Origin: Clostridiales bacterium
GTDB lineage: Bacteria; Bacillota; Clostridia; Lachnospirales; WQUN01
Direction: 5' to 3'
NCBI GenBank assembly: GCA_031254075.1
Contig: JAIRVD010000164.1
Location: forward strand, 1-6,860
Length of the DNA stretch: 6,860 nucleotides
A program made the translations under genes and the position numbers. Shown here piece by piece: positions 1-6,860 of this stretch. Within the stretch, counting starts at the first letter, position 1. Each line of letters begins with the position of its first letter. Below the pieces are notes generated by a model, which worked only from the letters and a program-made list of their open reading frames with translations, did no database searches and was not told the origin of the DNA.

Positions 1-723
1 TCGTGGCGAAAATCGTTTTCCGTCGCCGAAATTTGCGAGTTGATTAAATGTATACGTGAGCGTTCTCCGCGCACAATAATACTCGTGGACAATTGCTACG
101 GCGAGTTCGTTTCGGCGGAAGAACCAATCGAAGCCGATTTACTCGCGGGTTCGCTGATAAAAAATCCGGGCGGCGGAATCGCTGCGGGCGGCGGATATGT
201 CGTCGGAAAGAAAAAATTTGTCGAAGCCGCAGCGGAACGCCTTACCGCACCCGGACTCGGCAGCGCGGTAGGTCCGACGCTCGGAATGCCGCGCACCCTT
301 ACTCAGGGGCTTTTCCTTTCCGCGCAAACCGTTTCCGCCGCAATAAAGGGCGCGATTCTCGCCGCAGCCGTTTTCTCAAAACTCGGTTTCGACGTTAACC
401 CCGGCGTTTCCGAAACGCGCTCGGATATCGTTCAGGCAATAAAACTGGGTTCCGCCGAAAACATCCTCGCCTTCTGCCGGGGAATTCAAAAAGCCGCCCC
501 CGTCGATGCCTTCGTCACACCCGAACCCGCCCCGATGCCGGGTTATTCCCACGGCGTAATCATGGCGGGCGGAACCTTCATTCAAGGCTCGTCAATCGAA
601 CTCTCCGCAGACGCGCCAATGCGTGAACCGTTCATCGTGTATTTTCAGGGCGGTCTTACCGCGTCACACTCACGCGCGGGCGTTGTGTTTGCACTGCAGG
701 AATTGGAGGAAATATTATCCTGA
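1..723 (+). CDS. Aluminium-resistance / methionine-gamma-lyase-like PLP enzyme, C-terminal part (5' end outside window)
   Basis: The frame is open from base 1 and gives 240 residues to the TGA at 721-723. The first residues (SWRKSFSVAEI) already match the family, so the TTG at 40 is internal and the true start lies upstream. The protein belongs to the fold-type I PLP family annotated as aluminium resistance protein or methionine gamma-lyase family (usually a little over 400 residues), so roughly the last 57% is seen. Visible motifs are DNCYGEF (bases 88-108), whose Asp should hold the PLP pyridine nitrogen, and GSLIKNPGGG, whose Lys (160-162) is the probable Schiff-base lysine. A Gly-rich C-terminal part, PGYSHGVIMAGGTFIQGSS, follows. 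By family it is a cytosolic C-S lyase-like or cystathionine-lyase-like enzyme, but its substrate cannot be read from sequence and the aluminium link is only a historical name. Its stop overlaps the start of the VanY-like gene, so the two are probably co-transcribed. Confidence 0.88.
   Translation, partial: SWRKSFSVAEICELIKCIRERSPRTIILVDNCYGEFVSAEEPIEADLLAGSLIKNPGGGIAAGGGYVVGKKKFVEAAAERLTAPGLGSAVGPTLGMPRTLTQGLFLSAQTVSAAIKGAILAAAVFSKLGFDVNPGVSETRSDIVQAIKLGSAENILAFCRGIQKAAPVDAFVTPEPAPMPGYSHGVIMAGGTFIQGSSIELSADAPMREPFIVYFQGGLTASHSRAGVVFALQELEEILS
705..710 (+). promoter_or_regulatory. Ribosome binding site GGAGGA deciding the VanY-like start
   Basis: GGAGGA lies inside the last codons of the PLP enzyme gene. 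Ten bases separate GGAGG (705-709) from the CTG at 720, while the next possible start in frame, TTG at 738, is 28 bases away. The position therefore favours CTG 720 as initiator and suggests translational coupling to the upstream gene. Confidence 0.7.
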
Positions 724-1508
724 AAAAATTATTTTTTTTGTTTATTTTAATATTTTTTTTCCCGTGCGCCGCAAATGCCGACGACTCGGGTTTATTATGG
801 CTTGTTAATCGCAAAAATTCTTTACCTGCGAATTTTCGTCCGTCAGACCTTGTGAACTTTCAAGGTACAGAGCTTCGCGCGCCCGCGCGTGACGCTTTTT
901 CGGAGATGAAAACGGCAATGGAAGCAGACGGAATTCGCGGACTGAAACTGCAAAGCGCGTACAGGGCGTATTCCTATCAACGCGCTGTTTTTAATGAAAG
1001 AGTACGCATGATTGAAACAAAAGGAATAAATCGAAGCGCGGCGGAAGCGATTGCGGCACGTTCGATTCAAGCGGAGGGCGCAAGCGAACATCAACTCGGC
1101 TTGGCATTGGACGTAAGCATAGACGGAAAACTTTCACAATCATTCGCGGAAACCGACGCCGGACGCTGGATTGCGGAGAATTGCCATAAATTCGGTTTTA
1201 TCATTCGTTATCCCGAGGCGAAAACATATGTAACGAAAATAATCTACGAGCCGTGGCATTTGCGCTACGTCGGAATTCCGCACGCGCAAATAATGTACGA
1301 AACAACCCTCACACTCGAAGAATATCACGTCTTTCTCGCAAAAATTCCGATGTATATTGTGTGGGAAGAAGATTTCTATTTTTTAGTTATGTATAAAAAC
1401 TCCCCGCCGGAAAACGCAGATGCCGAAATCTTTGGCATATCCGCAACCAAACAGGGAGAAAACGCAGGCTATATTGTTACATTAAAAAAACCGGCGTTGC
1501 AGAGATAA
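720..1508 (+). CDS. Secreted VanY-type D-alanyl-D-alanine carboxypeptidase (peptidase family M15B)
   Basis: A 262-residue protein if started at CTG 720. From there the N-terminus reads MKKLFFLFILIFFF then PCAANA|DD, a textbook Sec signal peptide: two lysines, a hydrophobic core and an A-N-A signal peptidase I site near residue 20. Starting at TTG 738 would remove the lysines and leave no ribosome site. The M15B zinc-peptidase signature is complete: SAYRAYSYQ (about residues 79-87), SEHQLGLALDV with zinc ligands His124 and Asp131, GFIIRYPE (159-166), and YEPWHLRYVG with probable catalytic Glu177 and zinc ligand His180. It should trim the terminal D-Ala from peptidoglycan stem peptides outside the membrane. 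In a chromosomal setting without vanH/A/X this is wall maturation or recycling rather than evidence of glycopeptide resistance. About 55 C-terminal residues (from 207) extend past the catalytic core and are not recognised. The CTGA overlap with the upstream TGA implies an operon. Confidence 0.88.
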   Translation: MKKLFFLFILIFFFPCAANADDSGLLWLVNRKNSLPANFRPSDLVNFQGTELRAPARDAFSEMKTAMEADGIRGLKLQSAYRAYSYQRAVFNERVRMIETKGINRSAAEAIAARSIQAEGASEHQLGLALDVSIDGKLSQSFAETDAGRWIAENCHKFGFIIRYPEAKTYVTKIIYEPWHLRYVGIPHAQIMYETTLTLEEYHVFLAKIPMYIVWEEDFYFLVMYKNSPPENADAEIFGISATKQGENAGYIVTLKKPALQR

Positions 1509-1674
1509 AAAACTCTTTTGTTGAAGCGGCAGACCATTATTTATATCCGTAACGCGCCGCTGTTTTCCTGATATTTTTCTTCTCCGTTGATGAAATTGCC
1601 ACTCTGAGTTCTTCAACACGGAAAATACCTTTTCCCGTTTCTTGCATGTGTGAATTAGACTAACATGTATACTG
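1509..1674. other. Convergent intergenic gap with weak hairpins
   Basis: The gap lies between the stop of the VanY-like gene (plus) and the stop of the Fpg/Nei homologue (minus). I see no small gene here. Two weak inverted repeats are present. One is AGCGGC at 1525-1530 with GCCGCT at 1556-1561, followed by GTTTTCC, but its loop is 25 bases. The other is GGAAAA at 1620-1625 with TTTTCC at 1630-1635, with a 4-base loop. Either could help end transcription in a convergent arrangement, but neither has a clean U-run, so no terminator is called with confidence. Confidence 0.5.
1620..1635. terminator. Possible weak bidirectional terminator hairpin
   Basis: The inverted repeat GGAAAA-TACC-TTTTCC sits in the gap between two convergent genes, where a shared terminator is expected. 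The stem is only 6 perfect pairs, possibly 8 with a one-base bulge, and is AU-rich with no clear downstream U-tract. The call rests mainly on position. Confidence 0.25.
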
Positions 1675-2508
1675 TCACAGCATTTGGCAAGTCGGGCAAA
1701 AATAAATATTTCCGCCGAGGAAGGCTTGGCGGATGATTCCGCCGCCGCAGACGCGGCATGGGTGGGGCAGAGTGATTTTTGAAAGGATTGTTCGGTAGCC
1801 GCCGGAATTATTGAACAGGTCTTTTTCGGTGTCTCTGCCGCCGAGGTCTTTCATTTCTTTGAGGGTGGTTTTCACGCTGTTGAAAAGCTGCTCTTTTTCA
1901 TTTTCGCGCATTGTTTCGAGTTTTCGTTTCGGATGAATACGCGCGTTAAACAGAATATCCTGCGCAACGCCGTTGCCTAGCCCGGGAATTCTTTGTTCCG
2001 TTGCGAGGAATGCTTTCGCGCTGTAAGACGGCTTTGTATTTTCCCAAAGCGCGTCGAAATATTTTTCATCGAAAGCGTCGGTCAGCGGGTCGGGAAGATG
2101 TGTATTAGTAAAATGCCCGAGCGCGGTTTTGTCCGTTACGGGCGCGCAGAACATCGAACCCCACATTTGCACGGTGCAGCTCATATGCGAGTCGTCTTCG
2201 AATTCAAGCAGCAGTTGATGCTTTGCGGGCAGTTTTTTTTCAGGCGCGTGATATTTTATCGGTGTGCTGATTACAAGAAGCATGTCCTCACAAATAATTT
2301 CCGTATTTCCGCCGCAGGTGTAACCCGTACCCGGATTTGAATCGGTAATTTTCTTACCCGAAAGCATTGCGTCATAGGCAACGGGGTCGCCCGAATACCA
2401 CGCAAACGCGTGCGGGTGCGCGTTCGCTACAGCACGGCGAATCGTTTTCCCTGTCAGCGTTTGCTTTATTTGTTCCGATAATACATAGGTTTCGGGAATT
2501 TCAATCAT
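1675..2508 (-). CDS. Fpg/Nei-family DNA glycosylase homologue (formamidopyrimidine-DNA glycosylase / endonuclease VIII-like)
   Basis: A 277-residue protein beginning MIEIPETYVL. ATG 2508 is preferred over ATG 2517: an AAAGG at 2518-2522 is nine bases before 2508 but abuts 2517, and MIEIPE aligns directly with the family's MPELPE start. The family excises oxidised bases and nicks the abasic site. Visible elements are Glu3 of the N-terminal motif; PAKHQLLLEFED (about 94-105), whose Lys96 may be the conserved DNA-contact lysine; the helix-two-turn-helix region (about 167-196) with TEQRIPGLGNG and ARIHPKRK; and a C-terminal zinc finger with Cys251, Cys254, Cys271 and Cys274 (CxxC-16-CxxC). Two things are odd. 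Position 2, normally the Pro nucleophile, is Ile. The Arg usually found in the finger hairpin is absent from LGGNIYFCPTCQ. I recall a clostridial subfamily with this kind of N-terminus but cannot check it here. Family membership is secure; catalytic activity is not. The gene follows the kinase pair on the same strand after a 72-base gap. Confidence 0.85.
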   Translation of the reverse strand: MIEIPETYVLSEQIKQTLTGKTIRRAVANAHPHAFAWYSGDPVAYDAMLSGKKITDSNPGTGYTCGGNTEIICEDMLLVISTPIKYHAPEKKLPAKHQLLLEFEDDSHMSCTVQMWGSMFCAPVTDKTALGHFTNTHLPDPLTDAFDEKYFDALWENTKPSYSAKAFLATEQRIPGLGNGVAQDILFNARIHPKRKLETMRENEKEQLFNSVKTTLKEMKDLGGRDTEKDLFNNSGGYRTILSKITLPHPCRVCGGGIIRQAFLGGNIYFCPTCQML

Positions 2509-2517
2509 TATAATCAT

Positions 2518-2580: not shown

Positions 2581-5343
2581 TTAATCAACAAAAATCTGCA
2601 CGGGGGAGTTTCTGCTTGATGCGTTTCCGCTGTCGCCGAGTTGACCTTCGACATTGTGACCCCAAGCCCAAACGGTTCCGTCGGTTTTAATTGCTATGGT
2701 GAAGCTGTGTCCTGCGGAAACATGAGCGACATTGTCCATGATTCTCACGGGGCTGCTTTGGTTTGTGTTTGTTCCGTCGCCGAGTTGACCGCGGTCATTT
2801 GCGCCCCAAGCCCAAAGGCTTCTGTCGGCTCTGATTGCAACGGTGTGATTGAATCCGGCAGAAACGGTCAGCACGTCGTCGAGAATTTTTTCGGGTCTGT
2901 TTTGGCGTGCGCTTGTTGAGCCGCGTCCGAGCTGACCGCTTCCGTTGCGCCCCCATGACCATAAGCTTCCGTCGGTTCTGATTACCATTGAGTGATGGTT
3001 TCCGGCGGAGACGGCTCTGACATTTTCCATAATAAATGTGGGTTCGTTCACATTTCTGTTGCTTCCGTTACCGAGTTGACCGTGTTCGTTCCAGCCCCAT
3101 GCCCAAAGATTTCCGTCGGATGTAATTGCCATCGTATGCGATTCCCCGACAGAAACTGCGGAAACGTCCGCGATTATTCTTACGGGGGAATGACGCGCGA
3201 CAGTCGTACCGTCGCCGAGTTGACCGTTGTTATTATGTCCCCATGCCCAAAGGTTGCGGTCATTCGTAATTGCCGCCGTGTGGAAATTACCTGCCGAAAC
3301 GGCGACTACATTGTCCATTATCCTTATCGGGCTTAACTGTCCGTTTGCTGTTCCGTCGCCGAGGCGACCTGCGCCGCCCCATGCCCAAAGACTGTTGTCG
3401 TTTCTGATTGCCATAGTGTGACTGCTTCCGCCCGAAACAGCGGTATAGACTCCGGAAATTCTGACGGGGTTGAATCGGTTTACGGTTGTGCCGTCGCCGA
3501 TTTGTCCGCTGCTGTTGCTTCCCCATGCCCATAGTGCACCGCTCGACGAAATTACATATCCTGTATGCGAACCCGCCGCCGCGACCGTCATTCTTTCATT
3601 TGAAACGGGTTGCGGTGAGGGTGTCGGTGCAGTCGTAGGCGCGATTGTCGGTTCGGGGGTCGGTTCGGGCGCGGGGGTAGTTACGGCGGCGGGCGAACTC
3701 GTCGGCGCGATTGTAGGTTCGGGCGGTTCGGGTTCGCCGGTCGGCTCGGTAGTTTCTTCGTCCTCAATTACATCATCATCAGAGCGCGGCTGTCCCGTGC
3801 TTATTACAACCGAAACCATCGTTACATCAACCGAAGACGCTCCCGCCGCGGGGTTTTGCGAAATTACCAATCCGATTGCGGTGTTTTCGCTTGCGGCATA
3901 ATCGACACCGATATTCATGCCCATTTCGACGAGAACCCGCCTTGCATCATCTAATGTCAAATACACCAAGTCGGGAATTTCACCCTCGGGCGTCGGCTCC
4001 GCACCCTCGCTTATTCTGACTTCGACGGTGGTGTTTACTGCAACGACATCACCCGCGTTTATGCTTTGCGAAAGCACCAAATTTTCCGGAATTCTGTCGG
4101 AAGAATCTCTGCCGACAATTAAAAACGAAAGTTCCGCGTCGCGCAGGCGTTCTTCGGCTTGTGCAATATCATTGCTTATAACGGAGGGAACACGCGTTTG
4201 ACCGTCGTTAATCAGCGGCGGCAGTATTTCGGACGGCGCGAACGCGCGGAATATGCCAAGCGTAATGATTACAAACATCGCGGCGGGAAAACCGATTTTC
4301 GCCCAAAGCGGCAGATTGTATAACGGCAACTTTGAAATTTTTCCGTAAAGGCGCGTAACTTTTTCGGGCGGCTTCGTTGTCAATTCTTTTGCGAGCGCTG
4401 ACATATTTTGCGTTCTGTCTTCTATGCGAACGTTGATTGCGTTTAAAATCGCGGTTTCTTGATTTTCGGAAATATCTTTTGCGAATTTCGCGATTGGTTT
4501 TAAAATATCTTTTTTCTTGCCCTCGAAATATGCGCGGCGTTCAAACGCGTCAGGCGGAACGATGCCCGTTACCATTCGGTAGAGCGTTGCGCCGATTGCG
4601 TAAACATCGGTGTGACTACCTTGGTCGCCGAGACTGCGATATTGTTCTTCGGGCGAATAGCCCGGCTTTATAATTACGGTTAAACTTCGGCTGTGTGACG
4701 TCGTCGCGAATCGCGCGGCTCCGAAGTCAATTAATTTAACGCGTCCGTCCGTCGATAAAAAAATATTATCGGGCGCGATAAATCTGTGAATGATTCCGTG
4801 ACGATGAATCACTTCCAGCGATTTAATAATCGGCATAAGCAATTTAATTGCGTCATCGACGGGCATGGTTTTTTCACGGCGCAAACGCGCCTCAAGCGAT
4901 TCGCCCTGAAGATATTCGCGAATAATATACGCAGTATTGTTCTCCTCAAAGCTGTCGAAGATTCGAACCACACCATCTTCTTGGTGGAATTTCGCAAGCC
5001 TCTGCGCTTCCTCAACGAATTTCGAAAGCCCGTCGCCAAATTGCTCGGCTTTGTCACCCGTGAAAACGGTTACATTCGCTTGCCCCGGTACGCGCGTGGA
5101 AAATTCGCTCGGCAAATATTCCTTTATCGCGACTTTTTGCTCAAGCGTTGCGTCCCATCCGATGTATGTAATGCCGAAATTTCCGAACCCAAGCACCTTT
5201 CCGACAATATATCGCTCACGCAAAATACTGCCGGGTATCATGTGCAGACTATCTTCTGCCTTAGACTCTTCAACATAGCCGCAATGCGGGCAGGCATAAT
5301 TTTTATCTTCATATTTCATCATACAACTCATGCAAATTTTCAT
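2581..5343 (-). CDS. Membrane Ser/Thr kinase-like receptor: zinc ribbon, kinase domain with HRF (no catalytic Asp), TM, two PASTA, seven RCC1 repeats
   Basis: A 920-residue protein. Residues 4-21 hold a CxxC/CxxC zinc ribbon (C4, C7, C18, C21). The Hanks-type kinase domain is about 45-320: glycine loop GFGNFG (52-57), Lys74 in VAIKEYLP, an EE pair at 111-112 in the C-helix region, DFG (206-208) and SPEEQY in the activation segment. The catalytic loop reads HGIIHRFIAPDN, so Phe188 replaces the HRD aspartate while Asn193 is kept; this predicts a pseudokinase or very weak kinase. One membrane segment (about 349-368) separates the cytoplasmic kinase from an outside part. That part holds PASTA 1 (about 383-447), PASTA 2 (about 455-517), a Pro/Thr/Glu-rich stalk (about 529-583) and seven RCC1-type repeats (about 586-920). 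PASTA domains are known to bind peptidoglycan fragments or beta-lactams; RCC1 propellers bind proteins or other ligands. ATG 5343 has GGAGG five bases upstream and lies one base after the stop of the other kinase gene, so the two should be co-translated. Confidence 0.93.
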   Translation of the reverse strand: MKICMSCMMKYEDKNYACPHCGYVEESKAEDSLHMIPGSILRERYIVGKVLGFGNFGITYIGWDATLEQKVAIKEYLPSEFSTRVPGQANVTVFTGDKAEQFGDGLSKFVEEAQRLAKFHQEDGVVRIFDSFEENNTAYIIREYLQGESLEARLRREKTMPVDDAIKLLMPIIKSLEVIHRHGIIHRFIAPDNIFLSTDGRVKLIDFGAARFATTSHSRSLTVIIKPGYSPEEQYRSLGDQGSHTDVYAIGATLYRMVTGIVPPDAFERRAYFEGKKKDILKPIAKFAKDISENQETAILNAINVRIEDRTQNMSALAKELTTKPPEKVTRLYGKISKLPLYNLPLWAKIGFPAAMFVIITLGIFRAFAPSEILPPLINDGQTRVPSVISNDIAQAEERLRDAELSFLIVGRDSSDRIPENLVLSQSINAGDVVAVNTTVEVRISEGAEPTPEGEIPDLVYLTLDDARRVLVEMGMNIGVDYAASENTAIGLVISQNPAAGASSVDVTMVSVVISTGQPRSDDDVIEDEETTEPTGEPEPPEPTIAPTSSPAAVTTPAPEPTPEPTIAPTTAPTPSPQPVSNERMTVAAAGSHTGYVISSSGALWAWGSNSSGQIGDGTTVNRFNPVRISGVYTAVSGGSSHTMAIRNDNSLWAWGGAGRLGDGTANGQLSPIRIMDNVVAVSAGNFHTAAITNDRNLWAWGHNNNGQLGDGTTVARHSPVRIIADVSAVSVGESHTMAITSDGNLWAWGWNEHGQLGNGSNRNVNEPTFIMENVRAVSAGNHHSMVIRTDGSLWSWGRNGSGQLGRGSTSARQNRPEKILDDVLTVSAGFNHTVAIRADRSLWAWGANDRGQLGDGTNTNQSSPVRIMDNVAHVSAGHSFTIAIKTDGTVWAWGHNVEGQLGDSGNASSRNSPVQIFVD
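2584..3588 (-). repeat. Seven RCC1-type repeats forming a predicted seven-bladed beta-propeller
   Basis: Seven units with a period of 46-49 residues begin near residues 587, 636, 682, 730, 778, 827 and 875 of the PASTA/RCC1 protein. Each has the pattern VSAGxxHTxAI, a short turn, LWAWGxNxxGQLGDGT and SPVRI. At DNA level the repeated GQLGDGT codons appear on the plus strand as recurrent CCGTCGCCGAGTTGACC-like blocks, for example at about 2778-2797, 3211-3230 and 3352-3371. Seven blades is the canonical number for a closed RCC1 propeller, so the domain looks complete. The copies have diverged, so this is not a recent expansion. Confidence 0.9.
3595..3759 (-). repeat. Pro/Thr/Glu-rich low-complexity stalk with internal duplications
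   Basis: Encodes about residues 529-583 between the PASTA domains and the RCC1 propeller. PEPTIAPT occurs twice, matched at DNA level by two near-identical 20-base blocks at 3638-3657 and 3704-3723 that differ at one base. Such a stretch is expected to be an extended, flexible spacer outside the membrane, holding the propeller away from the PASTA domains and the cell wall. Length variation by slippage between the repeats is plausible. Confidence 0.75.
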
Positions 5344-5344
5344 G

Positions 5345-6860
5345 TTAACCTCCGATTAAACGAAAATATATTAAAAATTCTTCGTGAACATTTGTAAATT
5401 CATCAAGCATGTCGGAATTCACGGGCAGACTTCCGCTTCTGTTGCGAATATGCAAAATATCCTGAGCGTTGCTACCGAATAAATATCGCAGAAAACGTTC
5501 GGCGGCGGCGCGTTCGGCAGGGCTTGCATTTGCGTTGATGCTGAAAAAATCGGTGAAATGCGGTCTTTCTATATCAACGTGGCTGATGCTGTATCGACCG
5601 GGCAACGCCGCTTGAATTTCAAAAAAATCGGATGTATCGGAAATATATACTCCCGCCTGTTCCGACAAAAATAAATCCTTTCTTGGCGTTTGGAGATATT
5701 CGCCAAAAGTCGAATTTTCATAAATCACGGGAACGTTAAAACCGAGCGGCAGTTGATTTAATTCGGTGACAGACGTTAAATGGTCATAAAACCGAAACTC
5801 ACGCCGGGATAACCTTTCCGCGACGGCGGATAAATCCGCCGTGCTTTCCAAATTTCCAAATCCCGTTGATTCGAACAATGTCGGCAGATTTCCGCCTGTG
5901 ATTGCGTTTTCGTATCCCCTTGCCGGAAACGTTATTATTTCAATGTTTATATTCGAAAAATTTTCGCGGAACGCTGAAATTATATTTTCAAACGCGGCGA
6001 TTTTTTCTTCGTCATGCGGAAACGCAATTGTAATTGTTGCGGGCGCGAGTGTCTCTTGCACGCCCTGCGTATTCCAATTCGCGAAAAGCATAACCGACGA
6101 AAGAATTACAATTAAAAACGCGGATGCCAAACTCGCAATTTGTCGAAGCTGTCTGCGCCTTTTCAAGATACCAATCGGCGGAACGGGTTTTTCTTCAATG
6201 ATTGCCTTTTCAAAGTCGTAAACAGAAGCAAAGCGTAAATTTTTGTCAATTGCCATTGCACGCATTACAGAGTTGCTTACCGCCACGGGCACGGATGAAT
6301 TTAATTCATGCGGCGCGGGCACAGTGTCGGAAATTATTCTGTTTGTGGATTCCGTCGGCTTTACGCCTGTAAGCATGTAATACAGTGTTGCGCCAAGCGC
6401 GTAAATATCCGTTCGCGGTCCTTGAACGTTCACGCGTTCATATTGCTCGGGCGGAGCAAAGCCCGGCTTTAAAATAATTACGGGTTGCTGTTCTTTTTCG
6501 CTTGAAAAACGCGCCGCGCCGAAATCAATCAGCGTAATTATTCTGTTGTCACAAATAAAAATATTATCGGGGCTGACATCCCTGTGAATAATTCCGGCTC
6601 TGTGAATATCCTTCAGCGCGCCGCAAACATGCCCGATTATTTCGATACTGCCTTGGTAGTCCATTCGATTTGTTTTAAGAAATTCGTTCAGCGTGATTCC
6701 TTCCAAATGTTCCATTACTATATATGCGGTGTTGTTTTCTTCAAAATAGCCCGAAACCTTTATGATGTTCCTGTGCGAACTGAATCGCGCCATACTGCGC
6801 GCTTCGTCAATGAAACGCTCCAAGCCGTGCTTGTACACCTTCAAACGATTGCCGGAAAAA
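5345..6860 (-). CDS. Membrane Ser/Thr protein kinase with solute-binding-protein-like ectodomain (N-terminus outside window)
   Basis: The frame is open to the window edge. The first visible residues FSGNRLKVYKHGLERFIDEA align with the FTGDKAEQF region inside the neighbouring kinase, so TTG 6844 is not the start; the glycine loop, ATP lysine and any zinc ribbon lie upstream. There are 504 residues visible. Catalytic motifs are intact: HRDVSPDN (His92-Arg93-Asp94, bases 6586-6578), DFG (112-114) and GFAPPEQY in the activation segment. A basic run, LKRRRQLRQ, precedes one membrane segment (about 241-262), placing the kinase inside. The outside part (about 273-504) resembles a family 1 extracellular solute-binding protein. 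It opens with TITIAFPHDEEKIAAFENI and an INIEIITFP strand, then has PLGFNVPVIYEN. It ends with a helix containing SPAERAAAERFLRYL and the GSLPVNSDML tail typical of these proteins. At about 230 residues it is shorter than the usual near-400, so it may be a reduced binding domain. The expected role is phosphorylation of cytoplasmic targets in response to an external ligand. It is the first gene of the visible kinase pair. Confidence 0.9.
   Translation of the reverse strand, partial: FSGNRLKVYKHGLERFIDEARSMARFSSHRNIIKVSGYFEENNTAYIVMEHLEGITLNEFLKTNRMDYQGSIEIIGHVCGALKDIHRAGIIHRDVSPDNIFICDNRIITLIDFGAARFSSEKEQQPVIILKPGFAPPEQYERVNVQGPRTDIYALGATLYYMLTGVKPTESTNRIISDTVPAPHELNSSVPVAVSNSVMRAMAIDKNLRFASVYDFEKAIIEEKPVPPIGILKRRRQLRQIASLASAFLIVILSSVMLFANWNTQGVQETLAPATITIAFPHDEEKIAAFENIISAFRENFSNINIEIITFPARGYENAITGGNLPTLFESTGFGNLESTADLSAVAERLSRREFRFYDHLTSVTELNQLPLGFNVPVIYENSTFGEYLQTPRKDLFLSEQAGVYISDTSDFFEIQAALPGRYSISHVDIERPHFTDFFSINANASPAERAAAERFLRYLFGSNAQDILHIRNRSGSLPVNSDMLDEFTNVHEEFLIYFRLIGG
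5349..5353 (-). promoter_or_regulatory. Ribosome binding site GGAGG within the end of the upstream kinase gene
   Basis: On the minus strand GGAGG is followed by TTAAC and then ATG (5343-5341), a five-base spacing. It encodes the final Gly-Gly of the upstream kinase and overlaps its termination region (TAA 5347-5345). Ribosomes finishing the first kinase are therefore well placed to start the second. Confidence 0.75.

What the first reader, a model, noticed from the sequence alone, without database searches (positions are those of the whole stretch)
4780..4788. PASTA/RCC1 receptor kinase has HRF instead of HRD: predicted pseudokinase
The codons read CAC AGA TTT, so the catalytic-base aspartate is Phe188, while the ATP lysine (Lys74), Asn193, DFG and glycine loop are all kept. 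The neighbouring kinase has a normal HRD in the same motif context. Going from an Asp codon (GAT/GAC) to TTT needs at least two base changes, so a single sequencing error is unlikely. Retained nucleotide-binding motifs with a lost catalytic base is the usual pseudokinase pattern and suggests ATP-dependent scaffolding or allosteric control of a partner.
Basis: partly seen in the sequence, partly recalled or inferred. Interest (0 to 1): 0.7.

Follow-up and report, generated by a model that had tools for sequence, protein, structure and literature searches.

The report
Receptor pseudokinase paired with active kinase
A bacterial membrane protein has phenylalanine and arginine at two kinase active-site positions that are aspartate and methionine in all 119 of the closest relatives compared, so it is predicted to have lost phosphorylating activity and would instead regulate the normal-looking receptor kinase encoded right beside it.

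Summary
On the minus strand, 4780-4788 reads CAC AGA TTT, giving HRF (F188) in an intact 920-aa zinc-ribbon/kinase/PASTA/RCC1 protein.

Seven base changes in three codons make an error unlikely, and 'ATP motifs all kept' is incomplete. Among 75 kinases of this and related genomes, Arg gatekeeper occurs in 7 of 14 that lost a catalytic residue (the window's and six of a separate clade) and in 0 of 61 canonical ones.

The gene lies one base downstream of an HRD receptor kinase with a solute-binding-protein-like ectodomain. That tandem recurs in 14 other loci, 11 with a PP2C gene and six with a clear FHA gene; in one of the 14 the second kinase has also lost a catalytic residue.

Best reading: a young HER3-like pseudokinase partner of kinase A. 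Inactivity and pairing are inferred; drift is not excluded.

The parts
2581..5343 (-). kinase B (HRF protein), 920 aa: zinc ribbon, kinase domain, likely TM, PASTA, RCC1
   Evidence: intact ORF
5281..5334 (-). N-terminal zinc-ribbon CxxC..CxxC (C4, C7, C18, C21)
   Evidence: sequence; conserved cysteines in alignment A1
4393..5211 (-). protein kinase domain, residues 45-317
5179..5181 (-). N55 in the glycine loop (Gly in 119 of 119 listed relatives), codon AAT
5122..5124 (-). K74, beta-3 lysine, kept
4918..4920 (-). R142, gatekeeper (Met in 119 of 119 listed relatives), codon CGC
   Evidence: aligns with M of PknB YIVMEY; end of beta-5 in the model
4780..4788 (-). H186 R187 F188 in place of HRD
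4636..4728 (-). activation segment 206-236 (DFG to EEQYR), all 17 family-conserved positions kept
4249..4308 (-). likely transmembrane helix, residues 346-365
   Evidence: read by eye; no TM predictor was run
4009..4194 (-). PASTA domain (best of two stretches)
   Evidence: Pfam PF03793
2845..3621 (-). RCC1-like propeller (best stretch, residues 575-833)
   Evidence: Pfam PF25390 E 1.5e-114, seven RCC1 stretches
5349..5353 (-). GGAGG, Shine-Dalgarno-like, 5 bases before the ATG of kinase B; inside the end of kinase A
   Evidence: sequence
5345..6859 (-). kinase A, 504 aa shown, N-terminus (with its glycine loop and beta-3 Lys) cut off by the contig end; HRD, N and DFG present
6578..6586 (-). 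HRD of kinase A
   Evidence: sequence; alignment
5348..6046 (-). ectodomain of kinase A, solute-binding-protein-like
   Evidence: 8-sequence profile A3 to PDB 7v09 E 1e-10; SBP_bac_1/8 in relatives

Best explanation
Kinase B (the HRF protein) is predicted to be a catalytically dead receptor kinase that likely works as the regulatory partner of the HRD receptor kinase A encoded one base upstream in what is probably one operon. SHOWN: D188F, M142R (gatekeeper) and G55N against 119 of 119 listed relatives; intact ORF, predicted kinase fold and intact activation segment; A and B adjacent, and the same A-B order in 14 other loci, 11 with a PP2C phosphatase gene and six with a clear FHA gene. INFERRED: without the catalytic base B would not transfer phosphate; the Arg gatekeeper would point into the back of the ATP pocket and weaken or replace nucleotide binding; B, with PASTA and RCC1 domains outside, would dimerise with A as PASTA-type kinases do with themselves, and either allosterically switch A on (as HER3 does for HER2) or serve as its activation-loop substrate, with PP2C resetting and FHA reading the phosphate. 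The loss is recent on the tree, because the sister sequences keep HRD and Met.
For: 119 of 119 listed homologues have HRD and Met gatekeeper. Of 85 columns at least 99% conserved, B departs at four: G55N, M142R, T149S, D188F; the other 119 depart at a mean of 0.55. Three of the four lie in my ATP/catalytic-site set of 19 of those 85 (P 0.03). Codons 55, 142 and 188 need at least 2, 3 and 2 base changes. In 75 kinases with all four positions readable, window included (82 distinct; 7 dropped for gaps), gatekeeper Met is lost in 12 of 14 that lack a catalytic residue and 1 of 61 that keep all three; Arg in 7 of 14 against 0 of 61. The six other Arg-gatekeeper proteins belong to a clade apart from B (five of the six included). 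B's end branch (0.20) is near the tree's median (0.22), and it nests among HRD sequences. All 17 conserved activation-segment positions are kept. A-B tandems; in a tree of the 15 loci, A and B kinases separate at 100/100 support. PP2C and FHA. A second loss in a B partner: G002 has K74R, HLD and DFS beside an A that keeps K, HRD and DFG. PknB dimerisation and HER2-HER3 activation: passages of PMC6428115 and PMC4718504.
Against: F188 is seen in one contig of one MAG (78.5% complete), with no reads and no orthologue carrying Phe. In 13 of 14 other A-B loci every B keeps K/D/D, so the pairing does not need a pseudokinase. The rate test does not prove continuing constraint: 4 of 21 derived changes hit conserved columns, 6.9 expected if constraint were gone (P 0.12). 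The number of departures alone is not unique: P0041 departs at 8 such columns and P0107 at 4, both with HRD. Two degenerate B proteins (G002, G005) keep the Met gatekeeper. The six other Arg-gatekeeper proteins lie outside A-B tandems in the stretches fetched. No interaction or activity data; no coordinates were available, so the R142 geometry is untested. Kinase A's N-lobe lies off the contig and was not found elsewhere in G000, so its own activity is not certain.
Confidence: 0.55

Rival explanations
1. Young decaying gene: B lost its catalytic site by drift and the kinase domain no longer does anything useful; the ectodomain may or may not still matter.
For: Singleton state; 4 of 21 derived changes at conserved columns against 0 to 2 of 9 to 27 in six sisters; full relaxation is not rejected (P 0.12).
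Against: ORF of 920 aa intact with all domains; end branch not longer than the median; all 17 conserved activation-segment positions kept; three of four conserved-site changes are in the ATP site.
Confidence: 0.22
2. ATP-binding pseudokinase: nucleotide is bound with K74, N193 and DFG and gives ATP-dependent scaffolding.
For: K74, E112, N193, DFG and three loop glycines kept; HER3 binds ATP although it lacks this Asp (PMC4718504, passage).
Against: Gatekeeper Arg and G55N; Arg gatekeeper occurs in 0 of 61 canonical kinases.
Confidence: 0.13
3. Atypical but active kinase: another residue takes over as base, or low activity without a base suffices, perhaps only in an A-B dimer.
For: K74, E112, N193 and DFG are kept; weak activity is reported for HER3 (PMC4718504, passage).
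Against: Two further active-site changes; no acidic residue directly beside position 188 (IHRFIAPDN).
Confidence: 0.06
4. Assembly or strain-mixing artefact.
For: Fragmentary MAG (392 contigs); the best-hit list holds no second copy of the sequence.
Against: Seven base changes in three separate in-frame codons, no gap or frameshift against P0002. Identity to P0002 is lower at residues 141-180 (13 and 10 of 20), but that stretch is variable between sisters too (for example P0002 with P0005, 15 and 11 of 20).
Confidence: 0.04

Closest known systems
HER3 (ERBB3) receptor pseudokinase
   Same: Receptor whose kinase domain lost the HRD Asp but keeps beta-3 Lys, Asn and DFG Asp; works with an active homologous receptor (PMC4718504, passages).
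   Different: HER3 has Asn, not Phe, lacks the alpha-C Glu that is kept here, and binds ATP at about 1 uM; here the gatekeeper is also Arg; bacterial Ser/Thr family, partner only inferred.
PknB/Stk1-type PASTA kinases
   Different: NCBIfam NF033483 scores 219 against a cut-off of 450; zinc ribbon, RCC1 propeller, catalytic Asp absent.
PpkA (5hnv)
   Different: PpkA has HRD and Thr at the position of R142 in the printed alignment.
Bacterial pseudokinase families ActPs1-3, GLW, CP1, DYD, DLHK
   Same: Bacterial Ser/Thr kinase-like domains with lost catalytic residues (PMC12599244; abstract, section 4 part 1 of 2, section 10 and passages seen).
   Different: None is described in what I read as a zinc-ribbon/PASTA receptor in an A-B kinase tandem; the word gatekeeper does not occur in that paper's main text.
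EssB/YukC
   Same: Transmembrane pseudokinase of Firmicutes with a non-catalytic role (PMC12599244, section 4).
   Different: All three motifs lost, part of type VII secretion; here only the HRD Asp of the three residues is lost.

Membership tests
Pseudokinase (bioinformatic definition) | Loss of beta-3 Lys, HRD Asp or DFG Asp | tested here: met
   D188F; K74 and D206 kept; definition from a passage of PMC12599244
Pseudokinase (functional) | No phosphotransfer activity | not testable with these tools
   needs an assay
PknB/Stk1 PASTA kinase (NF033483) | Score above the curated cut-off | tested here: not met
   219.3 against 450
PknB/Stk1 PASTA kinase (NF033483) | PASTA domains after a kinase domain | tested here: met
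   PF03793, two stretches
Kinase B family of the tandem | Nests in the B clade and lies directly after an A-clade kinase | tested here: met
   trees; gap of 1 base
HER3-like receptor pseudokinase (analogy only) | HRD Asp lost, Lys and DFG Asp kept, receptor architecture | tested here: met
   TM read by eye
HER3-like receptor pseudokinase (analogy only) | Heterodimer with and allosteric activation of an active receptor kinase | not testable with these tools
   only the adjacency of A is shown
HER3-like receptor pseudokinase (analogy only) | Tight ATP binding | not testable with these tools
   Arg gatekeeper argues against
CP1 pseudokinases | Linked to a COG3899 ATPase domain, no transmembrane region | tested here: not met
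   Pfam gives kinase, PASTA and RCC1-type models and no ATPase domain; TM read by eye; definition from PMC12599244 section 10
GLW pseudokinases | GLW in place of HRD | tested here: not met
   HRF; definition from a passage of PMC12599244
ActPs1-3, DYD, DLHK pseudokinases | family profile | not tested
   no such profiles were searched

The most novel reading that the evidence does not exclude
The Arg gatekeeper is a convergent lock: in independent bacterial pseudokinases an arginine replaces the gatekeeper Met, reaches into the empty ATP pocket and ties the alpha-C glutamate or DFG aspartate, holding an active-like shape without ATP, so that a kinase-pseudokinase receptor pair in a PP2C-FHA-kinase-kinase operon signals by allostery as HER2-HER3 does.
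Probability: 0.2. Interest if true: 0.7.

Novelty: new variant of a known kind. Interest (0 to 1): 0.5.

Why it matters
Bacterial pseudokinases are described as largely unexplored experimentally (PMC12599244, abstract). Here one member of a recurrent two-receptor-kinase tandem has lost a catalytic residue while its neighbour keeps HRD and DFG, giving a small two-protein system in which allosteric control of a bacterial receptor kinase by a pseudokinase could be tested, with canonical B proteins of relatives as built-in controls. The gatekeeper residue gives a simple sequence mark for such proteins in this family.

Tried and rejected
Conservation of HRF in relatives: none found (0 of 119 listed; 0 kinases among 15 genome contigs pattern matches; 0 viral matches). 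The tool notes that records of the window's own genome or a near one may be left out of such scans.

Viral-contig copies of kinase B: 8 stretches matched a pattern, none confirmed, so no closer DNA for dN/dS; the closest proteins (P0002 and others) came without DNA.

Fold of kinase A's ectodomain by Foldseek: kinases filled the list; its identity rests on the sequence profile and Pfam in relatives. No SBP hit for the window's own kinase A at E 0.001.

Completing kinase A's N-lobe within G000: only B and distant kinases matched. A PP2C match ending at base 3087 of the 3106-base contig C132 may be the upstream part of the operon; unproven.

The count of A and B proteins sharing a contig length (15) was made from a hand-entered part of the lists (29 of 120 B rows, 18 of 120 A rows, chosen after I had seen matches), so it is only supportive and I do not lean on it.

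The Fisher P values ignore relatedness (six Arg-gatekeeper proteins are one clade), so I quote counts only. The ATP-site set was drawn up by me from recalled PKA numbering.

Literature: I saw no paper on an Arg gatekeeper pseudokinase of this family or on such a tandem in the listings; the library is open-access only, and only three papers were opened (PMC12599244, PMC4718504, PMC6428115: abstract, sections or passages as stated, none in full).

Full report
OBSERVATION. The window is the whole of contig C118 of an unnamed MAG (2.0 Mb, 392 contigs, 78.5% complete). The minus-strand ORF 2581-5343 (920 aa) encodes a zinc ribbon, a kinase domain (Pfam E 2.3e-33), a likely TM segment (by eye), PASTA and RCC1 repeats. 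Codons 186-188 are CAC AGA TTT, HRF. A GGAGG lies five bases before the ATG.

IS IT PRIVATE? A search of 5.8 billion proteins with residues 1-340 gave 7972 hits, of which the best 120 are listed: one is the window's own protein, and the other 119 all have HRD; the remaining hits were not seen. The nearest is 81% identical (P0002). A DNA pattern for HRF in this motif context matched 15 stretches in a collection of 84,980 genomes; translated in the matching frame, none is a kinase; viral contigs gave none.

WHAT ELSE CHANGED. Of 85 alignment columns at least 99% conserved in the 119, the window protein departs at four: G55N, M142R, T149S and D188F. R142 aligns with the Met of YIVMEY in PknB, recalled as the gatekeeper, and sits at the end of beta-5 in an AlphaFold model of mean pLDDT 85. 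Codons 55, 142 and 188 differ from the family codons by at least 2, 3 and 2 bases. There is no gap or frameshift against P0002. Identity to P0002 is lower at residues 141-180 (13 and 10 of 20), but that stretch is variable between the sisters as well. An error in three separate codons is unlikely. The other 119 depart at 0.55 such columns on average, though P0041 departs at 8 and P0107 at 4 with HRD intact. Three of the four departures lie in the ATP/catalytic site (P 0.03; set chosen by me). All 17 conserved positions of the activation segment are kept.

CONSTRAINT. Against six sisters, the window protein has 21 derived changes among 255 testable columns, 4 in conserved columns; 6.9 would be expected without constraint (P 0.12), while sisters show 0 to 2 of 9 to 27. 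Its end branch (0.20) is near the tree median of 0.22. So the active site has been released, and the test cannot say whether the rest is under selection.

CONTEXT. One base upstream, the same strand encodes kinase A: HRD kinase (N-lobe off the contig), a hydrophobic segment and a solute-binding-protein-like ectodomain (profile to 7v09, E 1e-10; SBP_bac hits in relatives). Related genomes hold the same order, A then B: 14 loci besides the window (L064, L065, L098, L099, L100, L101, L102, L103, L105, L108, L109, L157, L158, L159), with A-B gaps of -89 to 316 bases in the 11 measured; L100 and L158 have two B genes. In a tree of the 15 loci the A kinases (15 rows) and B kinases (16 rows) separate at 100/100; in the larger tree, L105's second kinase fell outside the B clade. 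Pfam finds a PP2C gene in 11 of the 14 (L064, L098, L099, L101, L103, L105, L108, L109, L157, L158, L159; in L105 it is downstream) and a clear FHA gene in six (L098, L099, L101, L102, L157, L159); L065 has only a marginal FHA match further off and no PP2C in the two flanking ORFs scanned; the flanking ORF of L100 and the corresponding ORF of L158 gave no Pfam match. The 120 listed homologues of G015's kinase A (itself among them) have HRD in 120 of 120. The family is not universal: matches to the B kinase domain (A-type kinases and the window's own genome included) at E 1e-70 or better occur in 25 of 392 genomes of the order, and at 1e-80 in 12 of 391 of the class.

RECURRENT DEGENERATION. 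Among the 15 A-B loci, window included, B has lost one of the three catalytic residues in two: the window, and G002 (K74R with HLD and DFS). G005, same genus, carries a G002-like B at a contig end without a visible A. G118 has HLD and DFA but keeps all three residues. Three genomes (G227, G174, G200) have a strongly degenerate kinase between two canonical ones. A separate clade of pseudokinases (G266, G239, G096, G263, G047, G194; beta-3 Lys to Asp/Asn, HGN), with no second kinase in the stretches fetched, has Arg at the gatekeeper, as the window does. In 75 distinct kinases with the four positions readable, window included (82 distinct rows, 7 dropped for gaps), gatekeeper Met is lost in 12 of 14 degenerate and 1 of 61 canonical ones; Arg in 7 of 14 and 0 of 61. 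In the protein lists the gatekeeper is Met in 119 of 119 B and 119 of 120 A proteins, the other being Phe. Relatedness inflates these numbers, but the window lies far from the Arg clade on the tree, so Arg most simply arose twice.

MECHANISM. Shown: sequence, fold prediction, gene order, intact activation segment. Inferred: no phosphotransfer; weak or no ATP binding; physical pairing with A; control of A by B or phosphorylation of B by A. For PknB the prevailing hypothesis is that ligand binding outside dimerises the kinase domains, which allows activation-loop phosphorylation (PMC6428115, passages). HER3, which lost the same Asp, activates HER2 or EGFR in heterodimers (PMC4718504, passages); [quoted passage not shown] BIR2 is the precedent for a receptor pseudokinase with a filled pocket, proposed as a dummy substrate of its active partner.

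COMPARISON AND NOVELTY. It meets the sequence definition of a pseudokinase (PMC12599244). It is not in NF033483 by score and does not show the CP1 or GLW marks; other families were not tested. New variant of a known kind; interest 0.5, held down by the single-MAG singleton status and raised by the gatekeeper change and the recurring tandem.

Noticed in passing
L104 4782-6383, L106 3951-5450, L107 4117-5625: Strongly degenerate kinase (glycine loop lost, beta-3 Lys to Tyr/Glu, LGN or HGN) encoded between two canonical kinases in three genomes of one genus.
   Followed up: partly
L126, L127, L129, L130, L132, L133: Clade of about 450-aa pseudokinases with zinc ribbon, HGN, beta-3 Lys to Asp/Asn and Arg gatekeeper, with no second kinase in the stretches fetched.
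   Followed up: partly
L064 4369-8940, L066 6151-7355, L108 532-5829: B-type clade with HLD...PNN/PSN and DFS/DFA; two of three also have beta-3 Lys to Arg.
   Followed up: partly
L069 2590-4716 and 5519-7939: Two neighbouring kinases of G015 are both degenerate (HKD with GIE; NAN with GFG).
   Followed up: no
L110 1256-3529: Kinase with broken glycine loop, Ser gatekeeper and HCDISPET (metal Asn lost) although the Lys, HRD Asp and DFG Asp are present: a likely further pseudokinase that the three-residue rule misses.
   Followed up: no
window 5348-6046: The solute-binding-like ectodomain of kinase A lacks a long middle stretch (dozens of residues) present in its relatives (alignment A3).
   Followed up: partly
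window 1-2517: Other genes: end of a methionine gamma-lyase family gene (1-723 +), VanY-type D-Ala-D-Ala carboxypeptidase (738-1508 +), Fpg/MutM-like H2TH protein (1675-2517 -).
   Followed up: no
L167 (G000 contig C132, 1646-3087): Two PP2C-like matches, the second close to the contig end; possibly the upstream part of this operon.
   Followed up: partly
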